Source of the DNA: Candidatus Odyssella thessalonicensis L13 | GTDB lineage: Bacteria > Pseudomonadota > Alphaproteobacteria > Paracaedibacterales > Paracaedibacteraceae | Direction: 5' to 3' | Assembly: GCF_000190415.1 (NCBI RefSeq) | Contig: NZ_AEWF01000001.1 | Span: forward strand, 310,001 to 374,000 | DNA length: 64,000 bases | Part shown: positions 637 to 5,449 of the stretch, piece by piece | How positions within the stretch are numbered: position 1 is the stretch's first letter | How the letters are laid out: every line of letters starts with the position of its first letter | Notes under the pieces: generated by a model | Database searches by the model: none | What the model was told of the DNA's origin: nothing | The model's input: the letters and a program-made list of their open reading frames with translations, nothing else | Translations under genes and position numbers: made by a program

Positions 637-971
637 GATTCTTTCCTTTTTGAAAGATAGGTTTATAGGGTTAACCAGAGGAGAACACGCGCTATTCTGA
701 TTGTTTTTCACTGATATGAGCGTGTTTGGGTTATTCCCCTCACATATTCCATGTTTCTTTGCTAAAAGCAGCTAGAATATGAGAGCAATTTTCTACAATT
801 TAAAATGCCCGGCATTTATTTAAAAAATATAACTTTTACTTTTCGAGAAAAAATACGTACTTTTATCAATATACGCTTGTAAATAATCCACGCTTATATG
901 TGTTTAACTATATTACGCTTTGAGACCCTAACCTATTTATAAAGGATTTTAATCTACATAAGGAAACTAGA
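637..971. promoter_or_regulatory. Divergent intergenic region with an inverted repeat
   Basis: This 335-bp AT-rich gap separates two divergent genes and must hold both promoters. The one structure I see is a 7-bp inverted repeat, AACACGC at 684-690 and GCGTGTT at 720-726, separated by 29 bases and flanked by partly matching purine and pyrimidine runs. It could be an operator or a leader hairpin. I see no clear -35/-10 pair and no small gene. Confidence 0.3.
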
Positions 972-3269
972 ATGAAGAGTCTTTTTTGCTCGCTGCTCAG
1001 ACCCTGCTCTCTTTTCTTGCTGTCCCTTACAGGGTTAGCCATGGATAGTAGCCCAGAACATCTTCAGGTTCAAACTTGTAGGCAGGTTACTCCCTTCCCT
1101 GCTCCAGAACTATTCCAGTTTCCTTTTTTAAAAGGCTTAAGCGAGTGCTCTGTATCAGAACTTGACCCTAAATTAGAATACCTAGACGGCAGAGCAAAGC
1201 CTAAAACCCAAGCGGGGATCGCTGCAAAGATTGGTGGTAACTTACTCCAAGCTCAACGTGATTTTCTTGACGCGAGCACTCTTGGATCTGAAATAGCTAT
1301 GGTTCAGCTGGGTCATATGGCTGTTGCCCGAGAAGATTATAGTCAAGCATTCCATTGGTATAATCTTGCTCAGTACACCGCCTTCCTCAAGAGAGGAATT
1401 TGGTCTGAAGGTCCTGCTGCAATAGGAGGGTTTGAGGCAGTTAGCCATGACGATTCCTTATCAAATATATCTTACTTAAATTTAATGATGGCTTTCCAAA
1501 AATATAACTTTTCTAATTCTCCTCTTTCTGTTCCTATTTCTGTGAGAGCATTCTTTATACTCACTCCCTTTTTAACACAGAAAATTTTTTACCCGTCTCC
1601 TGAGATAAATGAAAGCTTTCTTAAGGGGTTGGCCCACCTTGCCGGACAGCCTCCTATTTGGGATAAATTGGGGAGGTTCTATGAAGAAAAAAGCTTAGGA
1701 GATAGATTGACGGATGAGGAGCGTTATCAAAGAGCTGCCAATTGTTTCTGGAATGCCAAAACTCCTGAAGCATGGCATGAGCTAGGCAATCTAATTAATG
1801 AGCACAAGATTCACTACACTGATGCTGGTGAACCTATTCTTGGGTTACAAAGAGTTATGCTTGCTGCTGACTGCTACCGAAGAGCTGGACTTCGTGAATC
1901 TTTTTTTAAATTAGCGATAAGAATTCATGACAAACAAATTCATCAAGATGAAAATAACCAACCCTTTATAGAGAAGGACCGCAATAAAGTCGAGGCGCGA
2001 TGCCTATTAAAGGCTGCGTTGCCCATTGCTTATGAACTCCTAGCTGAACAGATCAGAGAAAAGAAAGTTAAATGTGATACCCAAGGTCAATTTATTGATA
2101 GCCAAGTTCCTGAAAGCTTTTATTATGAGACTGCAGCTTACTATTTACGAAAAGCTAATACGCCTTTTGCGCGCTTGTCTTTAGCGGAGTTAATTTCAGT
2201 ATCTAAAATTGATACCGATGAGAAGGGACGAAAAATAACGACTGCCCGTGAACGCCGCCAAGCAATAGTAAGAATTTGTGAAAGCCTTAGACTAGAAGAT
2301 TTCTCAAGACCAAGGGAGCGCCAATTATTTTTGACAAATTTTGGATCTTACATTAATGGGGGGATTCTCTATTACGATGCGCTGGGAAAAAGGTTAAAGT
2401 CGCATGCACAACGCGCTGAAATTGCGGCACAATATTACAGAGAAGCAGGGTCTAGGCTTGCCTTGGCCAACCTTGCAGGTTTAATTCTGCATCAATTAAC
2501 CGATCTAGATGCGCAGGGAAATAAGATTAATAGCGAAGAAGAGCGCTTTCAAATCGCTGAGAGATATAGCTCTCATTACTCCTTTGCTCACTATAACTTG
2601 GCTTTGATTACACTGCATAAATATCATCATCTTTCGGACTATCGGCAAAGAGCTCTCAATTATGCGATTCAAGCTATAGCCCTAGGACATGAGAGTGCTA
2701 TTGATCTATATCTCCAAATTAAAAAAGAGATAGATAAAGAAGGGCCCCTTTTAGAAAAAGAATTTAACCGGGTAGCACCTGAACTAGAAGCTTTGCCAGA
2801 GCAAGTTAATGAGGTTTCAGCGGAAAATCTTACTCTCTTTGAAGAGCCTACGGTTGGAACTATGGAAGCAGAGATGACGCCAGAAGCCCATAAGGAAATG
2901 AAAGAGATCGCTAAAAAGCTAAAAAATCATAGAGCTCAATATAAAAAACTCTTAAGGAAGCAGCTCTCAACAAATGAGGTGAAAGATATGGTGGATAATC
3001 AGCTGCAAACTACTCCTACCCAGTTCAATATTGCTTGGTCTAAGAATGCAGTAAAACAATTTCGTAAGTTGCCTTATTATGAAGCCAAAAAGGTCCTCCA
3101 TCTAATTCAGTTAATTAGAGAAGGTGAAATGCATCGGGGCCGTCCTGAGATGCTTAAAGGTGAAGATAAAATTATTACGCGGCGCATTGATAAAGGTGAT
3201 CGTTTAGCCTACTCTTTAATAGAGGATGGCATCCATATCCTCTCCACTAAGGAACATTTTAAGAAATAG
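972..3269 (+). CDS. Secreted helical-repeat protein with C-terminal YoeB/RelE-type toxin domain
   Basis: A 765-residue protein. Residues 1-23 form a Sec signal peptide ending GLA before MDSS. Residues about 85-590 are Sel1/TPR-like helical hairpins. Six loops of the form D-x-x-G-x-x-I recur with Asp at 284, 326, 369, 416, 469 and 513, a period of 42-53 residues. A charged linker (about 590-680) precedes residues 686-765, which match the Txe/YoeB RNase toxin fold. Counterparts of YoeB Glu46, Arg65 and His83 are present as Glu726, Arg744 and His762; the final Tyr84 is Phe763. YoeB cleaves mRNA on the ribosome. No antitoxin gene lies beside it. A signal peptide on such a toxin suggests an exported effector or polymorphic toxin, which is inference. 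Confidence 0.75.
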   Translation: MKSLFCSLLRPCSLFLLSLTGLAMDSSPEHLQVQTCRQVTPFPAPELFQFPFLKGLSECSVSELDPKLEYLDGRAKPKTQAGIAAKIGGNLLQAQRDFLDASTLGSEIAMVQLGHMAVAREDYSQAFHWYNLAQYTAFLKRGIWSEGPAAIGGFEAVSHDDSLSNISYLNLMMAFQKYNFSNSPLSVPISVRAFFILTPFLTQKIFYPSPEINESFLKGLAHLAGQPPIWDKLGRFYEEKSLGDRLTDEERYQRAANCFWNAKTPEAWHELGNLINEHKIHYTDAGEPILGLQRVMLAADCYRRAGLRESFFKLAIRIHDKQIHQDENNQPFIEKDRNKVEARCLLKAALPIAYELLAEQIREKKVKCDTQGQFIDSQVPESFYYETAAYYLRKANTPFARLSLAELISVSKIDTDEKGRKITTARERRQAIVRICESLRLEDFSRPRERQLFLTNFGSYINGGILYYDALGKRLKSHAQRAEIAAQYYREAGSRLALANLAGLILHQLTDLDAQGNKINSEEERFQIAERYSSHYSFAHYNLALITLHKYHHLSDYRQRALNYAIQAIALGHESAIDLYLQIKKEIDKEGPLLEKEFNRVAPELEALPEQVNEVSAENLTLFEEPTVGTMEAEMTPEAHKEMKEIAKKLKNHRAQYKKLLRKQLSTNEVKDMVDNQLQTTPTQFNIAWSKNAVKQFRKLPYYEAKKVLHLIQLIREGEMHRGRPEMLKGEDKIITRRIDKGDRLAYSLIEDGIHILSTKEHFKK

Positions 3270-3355: not shown

Positions 3356-4432
3356 CTAGAAGTATTGTTTTTTCAAATTCATGACGAATTTAATCACCTC
3401 GGCGACTGCTTGATAATGTTCTGGTGGAATTTCTTGTTCCAAGTCCACACTGGCATATAAGGCGCGCGCAAGAGGCGGATTTTCATATATGGGAACGTTT
3501 TGTTCATTCGCAAGCTCGCGAATTTTTAGAGCTATATTATCGATACCCTTTGCCACCACGATAGGGGCATTCATGGTATCTTGCTCATAATGAATGGCTA
3601 CCGCATAGTGAGTGGGGTTAGTAATAATAGCTGTTGCTTTACTAACGGATTCCTTTAAATTCCTTTTGATACGCTCTTGCGCGAGTTGGCGGCGTTTTTG
3701 CTTAATTTGCGGATCACCATCCAAATTCTTATGTTCACGCTTTACTTCGTCCTTGGTCATCCGTAAAGCCTTGAATAATTCAAATTTTTGGAACAAATAG
3801 TCGACGATAGAAATGATGGCCATAGCTGAGATTACAATCACAATAGCGTTAATTACATAGCCCTTTAACACTGAGAAAATGCGATCAGCAGGCACAAACA
3901 TCATTCCTTCAATCTGATTGAGCTTAGAGCGGAAAAAGATATAAAGAGCAAGGCCCACAACACAGATTTTAAATAGCCCCTTCACAAACTCTACCAATGA
4001 CTTTTTAGAAAAAATCCTTTTAAATCCTTGGGTGATTGATAAGCGTTCAATTTTAAGCTGTAACGCTTCAAAAGAAATAGCAAAACGGGTTTGAACAAAG
4101 CCTCCTGCTAAAGCAGCTGCCATATAAAAGCAAAGTAGTGGCAAGGTAAGTAAAAAGAAGTCAAGAATAACCCGCCATAATAAGGCAGACGTTGTGTGAG
4201 AGTCGATGTAGAACTGTTCAGGTTGACTTAGATATATGGAAAATTTTTTTCTAAAATTATGTCCAACATACCAAGAAAACATCATTATAGTGAGCCCGCC
4301 TGCCCCCAACATTATCCAATGAAGGACTTCTTTCGAGTAGGCAATTTGTCCGCTCTTAAAGGCTTCTTCAAGACGATGTTGGGTAGGTTCTTCGGTCTTA
4401 GATTCTTGATCCTGCTCGTTATTGTCAGCCAT
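3356..4432 (-). CDS. flhB: Flagellar export switch protein FlhB
   Basis: A 358-residue inner-membrane protein of the flagellar type III export gate. Four hydrophobic segments (about 35-60, 88-112, 148-170, 190-212) are followed by a charged cytoplasmic domain. The self-cleavage motif NPTH is at residues 272-275; cleavage between Asn and Pro switches export from rod/hook to filament substrates. The start overlaps the end of fliR by 8 bp, so the two are translationally coupled in a fliQ-fliR-flhB operon read leftwards. Length and motif agree with an intact protein. Confidence 0.95.
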   Translation of the reverse strand: MADNNEQDQESKTEEPTQHRLEEAFKSGQIAYSKEVLHWIMLGAGGLTIMMFSWYVGHNFRKKFSIYLSQPEQFYIDSHTTSALLWRVILDFFLLTLPLLCFYMAAALAGGFVQTRFAISFEALQLKIERLSITQGFKRIFSKKSLVEFVKGLFKICVVGLALYIFFRSKLNQIEGMMFVPADRIFSVLKGYVINAIVIVISAMAIISIVDYLFQKFELFKALRMTKDEVKREHKNLDGDPQIKQKRRQLAQERIKRNLKESVSKATAIITNPTHYAVAIHYEQDTMNAPIVVAKGIDNIALKIRELANEQNVPIYENPPLARALYASVDLEQEIPPEHYQAVAEVIKFVMNLKKQYF

Positions 4433-5186
4433 TAGCTACTCCCGTTAAGAAATCTCGAAAGGAATCAATAAACACGTTTACAATAGAGCTGATTATGATT
4501 GCCAACAACATAAAGCCCAGAAACATTTGAACAGGGGCAAACATGAAATAGACCTGCATCTGTGGCATGAGGCGATTAACTAAACCAATACAAATGCTCA
4601 ATAATAATCCCACAATAATCACAGGCAGGGAGAGTTTTATGCCTAACCAGAAACTTTGAGCAATTATCTCGGTGATTGCTTGGCTAAAATCTCCGATCAA
4701 GACTGGACCTGTGGGCGGGAAAATTTCATAAGAGCTAATCAAGGCAGCAATTAATAAATAATGGCAATCAGTTGCAAACATCATCGTAATAACGGCAAAC
4801 ATTAATAATGTACCTATCGCTGTATCTTGCATTCCTAAAGTGGGATTTAAAATCGCGGCTCCCGAAAGGGAAGTTTGCAGTCCAATTATTGTTCCTGCAA
4901 TCTGTAAAGAACTTAGCAAAATTCTTGCCAGCAGCCCTAAGAAAGTCCCAAAAAGGATCTCCTTTAATATATACATTAAAGTTTCAGAAGCCATTAATTC
5001 TGTGCTGGGCAACCCCGCATCAATGACGGGCGTAATTACTAAAGTCAGCACAAAGGATAAAATAAGGCGCACTCGTACGGGAACAAATGCCTCGCCAATG
5101 CCAGGAAAAAGCATGAACAAGGCGCTTAAGCGCAGGAAGACAAAGAAATAATCATAAATATCATCAAAATAAAAGGTATGGATCAT
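4425..5186 (-). CDS. fliR: Flagellar export gate protein FliR
   Basis: A 253-residue multipass membrane protein of the flagellar type III export gate, where it forms the core pore with FliP and FliQ. The sequence is dominated by hydrophobic helices and has the usual family length. The ATG overlaps the fliQ stop by 4 bp (ATGA) and its own stop overlaps flhB, so the three genes form a coupled operon. The order fliQ-fliR-flhB is typical of alphaproteobacteria. Confidence 0.94.
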   Translation of the reverse strand: MIHTFYFDDIYDYFFVFLRLSALFMLFPGIGEAFVPVRVRLILSFVLTLVITPVIDAGLPSTELMASETLMYILKEILFGTFLGLLARILLSSLQIAGTIIGLQTSLSGAAILNPTLGMQDTAIGTLLMFAVITMMFATDCHYLLIAALISSYEIFPPTGPVLIGDFSQAITEIIAQSFWLGIKLSLPVIIVGLLLSICIGLVNRLMPQMQVYFMFAPVQMFLGFMLLAIIISSIVNVFIDSFRDFLTGVANG

Positions 5187-5449
5187 TGCCTGTCAACTAT
5201 ATGTCCATAAAGTTCCATGGATAAGGTCGATAAAGTGGCACCAATAAACGGCATACAGAAAGCCAGAACAATAAATAAAACAATCATTTTGGGCACAAAT
5301 GTTAATGTGGTTTCTTGAATTTGAGTTAGGGCTTGGAAGACAGAGACAATAATACCGACCACAAGGCTGGCAAGAAGTAAGGGAAATGAGATCTTAACAA
5401 TTGCGATCATTGTATGGTTGAGAATTTCAAGCACAAGTTCTGGCGTCAT
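5183..5449 (-). CDS. fliQ: Flagellar export gate protein FliQ
   Basis: An 88-residue protein with two membrane helices (about 15-40 and 52-75), matching the length and topology of FliQ, which packs around the FliP-FliR core of the export gate. It starts the fliQ-fliR-flhB operon. The upstream gap to rplU is short and divergent, so its promoter must lie in 5450-5587 on the minus strand. Confidence 0.93.
   Translation of the reverse strand: MTPELVLEILNHTMIAIVKISFPLLLASLVVGIIVSVFQALTQIQETTLTFVPKMIVLFIVLAFCMPFIGATLSTLSMELYGHIVDRQ

What the first reader, a model, noticed from the sequence alone, without database searches (positions are those of the whole stretch)
972..3269. Secreted repeat protein fused to a YoeB-type toxin domain
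YoeB/RelE toxins are normally about 85-residue cytoplasmic partners of an antitoxin. Here a YoeB-like domain is the last 80 residues of a 765-residue protein with a Sec signal peptide and Sel1/TPR-like repeats, and no antitoxin gene is next to it. Counterparts of YoeB Glu46, Arg65 and His83 are kept, with Tyr84 changed to Phe. This layout would turn a housekeeping-type RNase toxin into an exported effector or a polymorphic toxin.
Basis: partly seen in the sequence, partly recalled or inferred. Interest (0 to 1): 0.72.

Follow-up and report, generated by a model that had tools for sequence, protein, structure and literature searches.

The report
Exported solenoid proteins carrying YoeB-like domain
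In protist-dwelling bacteria, a domain related to the bacterial mRNA-cutting toxin YoeB has become the tail of a family of large exported proteins that lack any antitoxin partner, which makes them good candidates for proteins aimed at the host cell.

Summary
The ORF at 972-3269 (765 aa) has a Sec-type signal peptide, a Sel1-like helical solenoid made of 43-residue units, a charged linker and a C-terminal YoeB-fold domain (residues 681-765). The domain scores 30.0 bits against Pfam YoeB (cut-off 27); its AlphaFold model matches E. coli YoeB at Z 12.9, rmsd 1.4 Å. Glu46, Arg59, Arg65 and His83 are kept; Tyr84 is Phe. No antitoxin is adjacent, and the genome's only YefM-type antitoxin sits beside its single stand-alone YoeB.

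The layout is not unique. The same genome holds three intact paralogs, and I found 18 intact members in small-genome, symbiont-like Alphaproteobacteria of several families and orders. Every intact member starts with a signal-like N-terminus. The YoeB part is the best-conserved part. Arg65 and His83 are invariant among the 22 domains I compared. Bodies vary while the tail stays, and none of the 14 loci tested has an immunity gene or conserved neighbour, so it is not a classical polymorphic toxin. One member sits among secreted F-box/LRR proteins, which points to the eukaryotic host.

Most likely an antitoxin-free exported effector with YoeB-type chemistry. Activity, delivery beyond the inner membrane and target are untested.

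The parts
960..965 (+). Shine-Dalgarno-like AAGGAA, 6 bases before the ATG
   Evidence: read from sequence
972..3269 (+). whole gene, 765 aa
   Evidence: ortholog and paralogs
972..1040 (+). Sec-type signal peptide, residues 1-23 (GLA|MD)
   Evidence: rule-based score; hydrophobic core retained in the ortholog although only 40% identical there
1041..1697 (+). N-terminal helical region, residues 24-242; low-confidence model
   Evidence: pLDDT about 30
1698..2771 (+). Sel1-like alpha-solenoid, residues 243-600, degenerate 43-residue units (two helices joined by a DExGxPI loop)
   Evidence: repeat profile matches; model with pLDDT 67-94 over residues 261-530; fold like Sel1 proteins LpnE, LceB, HcpC
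2772..2879 (+). acidic low-confidence linker, residues 601-636
2880..3008 (+). long basic helix, residues 637-679, preceding the YoeB-like domain
3012..3266 (+). YoeB-like (BECR-fold) domain, residues 681-765; E726, R738, R744, H762 correspond to YoeB Glu46, Arg59, Arg65, His83; F763 replaces Tyr84

Best explanation
The gene encodes one member of a family of antitoxin-free exported proteins of protist-associated Alphaproteobacteria. Steps: (1) the signal peptide sends the unfolded chain through Sec, so the domain does not fold in the producer's cytoplasm and no antitoxin is needed (export inferred from sequence; self-protection inferred). (2) The Sel1-like solenoid, linked by an acidic spacer, binds a partner or guides the protein (inferred from what Sel1 repeats do elsewhere). 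(3) The C-terminal domain keeps the YoeB fold and the Glu46/Arg59/Arg65/His83 set (shown) and probably cleaves mRNA in the ribosomal A site as YoeB does (inferred). (4) The most likely target is the translation machinery of the eukaryotic host cell, cytosolic or organellar, rather than rival bacteria (inferred from symbiont-type genomes, lack of immunity genes and one locus beside secreted F-box/LRR proteins). The export step after the periplasm is unknown.
For: Fold and profile. Catalytic residues: Arg65 and His83 counterparts present in 22 of 22 fused or related domains compared; invariant columns of 13 fused domains are L48, R57, R64, Y67, H82 (domain numbering), two of them these catalytic residues. 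Purifying selection: in the tandem paralogs dN/dS is 0.076 in the YoeB part against 0.30 overall (Fisher p 0.024); window versus ortholog 66% identity in the YoeB part against 52% elsewhere (p 0.011). Signal-like N-terminus in all intact members. No antitoxin: no adjacent candidate at 14 loci, and only one PhdYefM gene in the genome, beside the stand-alone YoeB. Host setting: the G284 copy lies among secreted F-box+LRR, LRR and Sel1+Smr proteins. Fused long forms seen only in genomes of at most 2.85 Mb; in 398 genomes drawn from the phylum the listed YoeB hits other than the window genome's own lie in frames of at most 220 aa. Residue roles: Feng 2013, PMC3814384.
Against: Tyr84 is Phe here, Ile in the ortholog and Asp in three others; Glu46 is Lys or His in 8 of 22, so some or all domains may have lost or changed catalysis. 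Only Sec export is supported; no route across the outer membrane or into the host was shown. The domain scores below the NCBIfam Txe/YoeB equivalog cut-off. The host target rests mainly on lifestyle and one neighbourhood. Selection contrasts are modest (p 0.01-0.02), and the lower dS in the YoeB part of the tandem pair could reflect gene conversion.
Confidence: 0.48

Rival explanations
1. The YoeB fold has been repurposed: an exported Sel1 protein whose C-terminal domain binds RNA or protein but no longer cleaves mRNA.
For: Tyr84 changed in 5 of 22 and Glu46 in 8 of 22; ParE toxins show the fold can change target; no antitoxin is needed anywhere.
Against: Arg65 and His83 are invariant across deeply divergent members and the domain is the best-conserved part. 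Loss of Glu46 compromises YoeB activity but A1493 may stand in as base, according to Feng 2013.
Confidence: 0.27
2. An antibacterial or polymorphic toxin used against rival or sibling bacteria inside the shared host cell.
For: N-terminal export signal plus C-terminal nuclease domain is the polymorphic-toxin layout; Odyssella is reported to have true polymorphic toxins with immunity genes (Zhang 2012, PMC3482391); YoeB naturally acts on bacterial ribosomes.
Against: No immunity gene or conserved neighbour at 14 loci; no shared body with alternative toxin tails; bodies vary and the tail stays; no orphan toxin cassettes seen next to the genes.
Confidence: 0.17
3. A periplasmic or surface Sel1 scaffold of the bacterium itself, with the YoeB-like domain a decayed passenger.
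For: Sel1 proteins can be periplasmic scaffolds; AlgK structures appear among the fold matches; several relatives are broken genes (G033, G029, G181).
Against: A passenger should decay first, yet the YoeB part is the best conserved and is joined to different bodies.
Confidence: 0.08

Closest known systems
YoeB/Txe toxin of yefM-yoeB addiction modules (PF06769; E. coli YoeB)
   Same: Fold (Z 12.9 to 2a6r, rmsd 1.4 Å, 27% identity) and Glu46/Arg59/Arg65/His83 counterparts.
   Different: Tail of a 765-aa signal-bearing protein, no YefM, Tyr84 to Phe, below the NCBIfam equivalog cut-off; in the domain tree 20 of 21 stand-alone sequences group together (87/83) apart from the fused ones.
Polymorphic toxins with BECR-fold RNase tails (Zhang 2012, PMC3482391)
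   Same: N-terminal export signal, repeat body (Sel1/TPR is listed there), C-terminal RNase-fold domain; Odyssella is discussed there.
   Different: No immunity gene, no tail swapping; that survey reports classical RelE as a polymorphic toxin only once (Paenibacillus elgii).
Multidomain RelE/ParE-superfamily proteins (PMC11980606)
   Same: YoeB domain inside a longer protein (YefM-YoeB and RHH-YoeB fusions).
   Different: Those contain or adjoin an antitoxin; the authors left out multidomain proteins without one, which is this class.
YoeB-annotated toxins associated with extracellular contractile injection systems (PMC11297309)
   Same: YoeB domain inferred to be delivered out of the cell.
   Different: Different export route.
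Legionella Sel1 proteins LpnE and LceB; Helicobacter HcpC
   Same: Sel1 solenoid fold (Z 13.0-14.5 over 246-287 residues, but rmsd 8-15 Å, so only a general match); LpnE is titled an effector in its PDB entry.
   Different: No RNase domain named in the PDB titles; 43- rather than 36-residue units here.

Membership tests
YoeB/Txe toxins (PF06769) | profile match above Pfam's gathering score | tested here: met
   30.0 bits against 27 for residues 681-765; 24.7 for the whole chain
YoeB/Txe toxins (PF06769) | YoeB fold | tested here: met
   predicted model, Z 12-13 to several solved YoeB chains
YoeB/Txe toxins (PF06769) | Glu46, Arg59, Arg65 and His83 | tested here: met
   E726, R738, R744, H762
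YoeB/Txe toxins (PF06769) | Tyr84 at the C-terminus | tested here: not met
   Phe763, followed by Lys-Lys
Txe/YoeB addiction-module toxin (NCBIfam TIGR02116 equivalog) | score over the equivalog cut-off of 51.8 | tested here: not met
   25.5 bits
Type II toxin-antitoxin module yefM-yoeB | adjacent YefM-type antitoxin gene | tested here: not met
   the only PhdYefM gene of the genome lies at C16 beside the stand-alone YoeB
YoeB/Txe toxins (PF06769) | ribosome-dependent mRNA cleavage | not testable with these tools
   needs a biochemical assay
Polymorphic toxin system | N-terminal export signal and C-terminal toxin domain | tested here: met
Polymorphic toxin system | immunity gene directly downstream | tested here: not met
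   no candidate or conserved neighbour at 14 loci
Polymorphic toxin system | same body with exchangeable toxin tails or orphan cassettes | tested here: not met
   in all 8 of 42 order genomes with the 43-aa repeat, the repeat protein has a YoeB-like tail; no cassettes seen
Sel1 repeat proteins (PF08238) | Pfam Sel1 score over cut-off | tested here: not met
   none for the window protein; met in relatives G017, G284 and G033
Sel1 repeat proteins (PF08238) | Sel1-type alpha-solenoid fold | tested here: inconclusive
   best structural neighbours are Sel1 proteins, Z 13-15, but with large rmsd on a shallow-alignment model

The most novel reading that the evidence does not exclude
Holosporales-type symbionts have turned a toxin-antitoxin RNase into a lineage-wide family of antitoxin-free effectors, sent through Sec with varied helical bodies into protist hosts, where they cleave mRNA on host cytosolic or mitochondrial ribosomes.
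Probability: 0.3. Interest if true: 0.75.

Novelty: new variant of a known kind. Interest (0 to 1): 0.52.

Why it matters
It would show how a housekeeping-type toxin can lose its antitoxin by moving to the secretory pathway, and would give protist symbionts of the Holosporales group, whose effectors are almost unknown (PMC11909080), a concrete testable family. It also fills a class that the RelE/ParE surveys left out.

Tried and rejected
Chance or assembly fusion: rejected, since the layout recurs in 18 intact proteins. Type II TA with hidden antitoxin: no candidate small ORF conserved between loci. Anti-phage defence: no PADLOC match. Plasmid carriage: no tblastn match among 72,556 plasmids. 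Viral relatives: none by two viral-contig scans. Shared neighbour as partner: the 301-aa neighbour of C15a is reduced to a 62-aa remnant beside C15b, so not required. One origin of the fused domain: the tree needs 2 label changes only because of L103, a 133-aa copy; strict one-clade grouping gave p-AU 0.023, so one fusion event plus a later solo copy fits, but long branches make this uncertain. The named-genome scan gave only two family members with titles, so organism names rest on inference. Weak clostridial-neurotoxin translocation-domain hit (E 0.018, below cut-off, helical stretch): judged spurious coiled-coil similarity. Whole-protein model is poor over residues 1-256 (pLDDT about 30), so that part is undescribed.

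Full report
WHAT IS THERE. The ORF at 972-3269 encodes 765 residues and has a good ribosome-binding site. It starts with a Sec-type signal peptide, continues into a helical solenoid of degenerate 43-residue units, an acidic linker and a long basic helix, and ends in an 85-residue domain. That domain matches Pfam YoeB_toxin above its cut-off (30.0 against 27 bits), but not the NCBIfam equivalog for addiction-module toxins. Its AlphaFold2 model (mean pLDDT 78) matches solved YoeB chains best (2a6r: Z 12.9, 1.4 Å over 78 residues, 27% identity). Glu46, Arg59, Arg65 and His83, the residues that act in the YoeB-70S structure (Feng 2013, PMC3814384), are E726, R738, R744 and H762; Tyr84 is F763.

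A FAMILY, NOT ONE FUSION. The window lies in a 2.85-Mb genome of 20 contigs. The same genome holds three more intact proteins of this layout: a 1144-aa protein on C14 and two tandem proteins of 933 and 927 aa on C15. It also holds one ordinary 86-aa YoeB beside a YefM antitoxin. A 54%-identical ortholog sits in another species of the genus, in a different place (between glyS-like and trkA-like genes). Searches of the order, the class and two further orders raised the total to 18 intact members (G000 x4, G003, G040, G015, G017, G001, G034, G007, G020, G284, G399, G785, G322 x2, G787), plus one cut by a contig end (G186) and several broken or short copies. Every intact member begins with a signal-like N-terminus. 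G284 and G040 need a start downstream of the listed one for the signal to lie at the N-terminus. In 398 genomes drawn from the phylum, the listed YoeB hits outside the window genome lie in frames of at most 220 aa (the list is cut at its weak end). The long fused forms come only from genomes of at most 2.85 Mb.

BODY VARIES, TAIL STAYS. The 43-residue repeat profile hits 8 of 42 genomes of the order, and in each the repeat protein ends in a YoeB-like domain, weak by Pfam in some. Other members carry ordinary Sel1 repeats (G017, G284, G033), TPR-like repeats (G399, G785) or a body without recognised repeats (G001, G787). This is the reverse of a classical polymorphic toxin, where one body takes many tails. 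In a tree of the domain, 20 of 21 stand-alone YoeB sequences fall on one side of a branch (87/83) and all fused domains on the other with one short copy; support is limited and long branches are present.

SELECTION AND ACTIVE SITE. Arg65 and His83 counterparts are present in all 22 domains I compared. Glu46 is kept in 14, and Tyr84 is changed in 5 (read partly by eye from the sequences). In the tandem pair, dN/dS is 0.076 in the YoeB part against 0.30 overall; between window and ortholog, identity is 66% in the YoeB part and 52% elsewhere (Fisher p 0.024 and 0.011). The domain is thus under constraint, which speaks against a decayed passenger. The changes at Glu46 and Tyr84 leave room for altered or lost catalysis. 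Feng 2013 suggests that A1493 of the ribosome may stand in for Glu46 and that His can replace it in YafQ.

NO PARTNER. None of 14 loci has a conserved neighbour or antitoxin-like small ORF. The genome has one PhdYefM gene only, next to the stand-alone YoeB. A protein that folds only after export needs no cytoplasmic antitoxin; this is inference.

HOST SETTING. The G284 member lies in a row of secreted proteins: an F-box+LRR protein, an LRR protein and a Sel1+Smr protein. F-box domains have meaning only in eukaryotic cells (established knowledge). One secretin gene exists in the genome, but whether it serves this export is unknown. The review names a type VI system as the likeliest effector route of the group, which would not normally use Sec.

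WHAT IS KNOWN. The polymorphic-toxin survey lists Sel1 and TPR bodies, treats Odyssella, and found classical RelE used as a toxin tail once only (PMC3482391). The 2025 survey of multidomain RelE/ParE proteins left out those without an antitoxin (PMC11980606). YoeB-annotated toxins are reported among contractile-injection-system cargo (PMC11297309). A full-text search for YoeB with Sel1 returned two papers, which by title and abstract do not concern such a fusion and were not read, and one for YoeB with signal peptide, effector and symbiont found no paper. The family appears undescribed in the open library searched, which lacks most subscription journals.

VERDICT. A real, recurrent and conserved exported YoeB-like protein family; new variant of a known kind. 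Shown: architecture, fold, residues, recurrence, constraint, lack of antitoxin. Inferred: export beyond the inner membrane, RNase activity, host target.

Noticed in passing
L107:4124-13143: In genome G284 four secreted genes in a row: LRR protein, F-box+LRR protein, Sel1-YoeB protein, Sel1+Smr protein; looks like an effector island of a protist symbiont.
   Followed up: partly
L027:4976-12507: Tandem block: a 301-aa secreted protein next to C15a is present as a 62-aa C-terminal remnant (84% identical over 57 aa) next to C15b, so a two-gene block was duplicated and one partner decayed.
   Followed up: partly
window 3356-5449 (-): By sequence these look like flagellar export genes flhB, fliR and fliQ, directly downstream of and convergent with the finding.
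   Followed up: no
window 24590-26854 (-) and 42264-44009 (+): Two large proteins (754 and 581 aa) with signal-like N-termini and no Pfam match at E 0.05; the second narrowly misses the rule-based score.
   Followed up: no
L028:4816-8182: The genome's one YefM-YoeB pair lies about 1.3 kb upstream of a 521-aa ORF that looks like a group II intron reverse transcriptase.
   Followed up: no
L095, L097, L098 C-termini: A subgroup of fused domains (G034, G007, G020) ends in GHDDT plus about 13-18 further residues instead of GHY, so Tyr84 is Asp and the tail is extended.
   Followed up: partly
L109:7083-9212: Beside the G399 member lies what looks like a frameshifted second copy, whose 296-aa frame ends in a YoeB-like domain.
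   Followed up: partly
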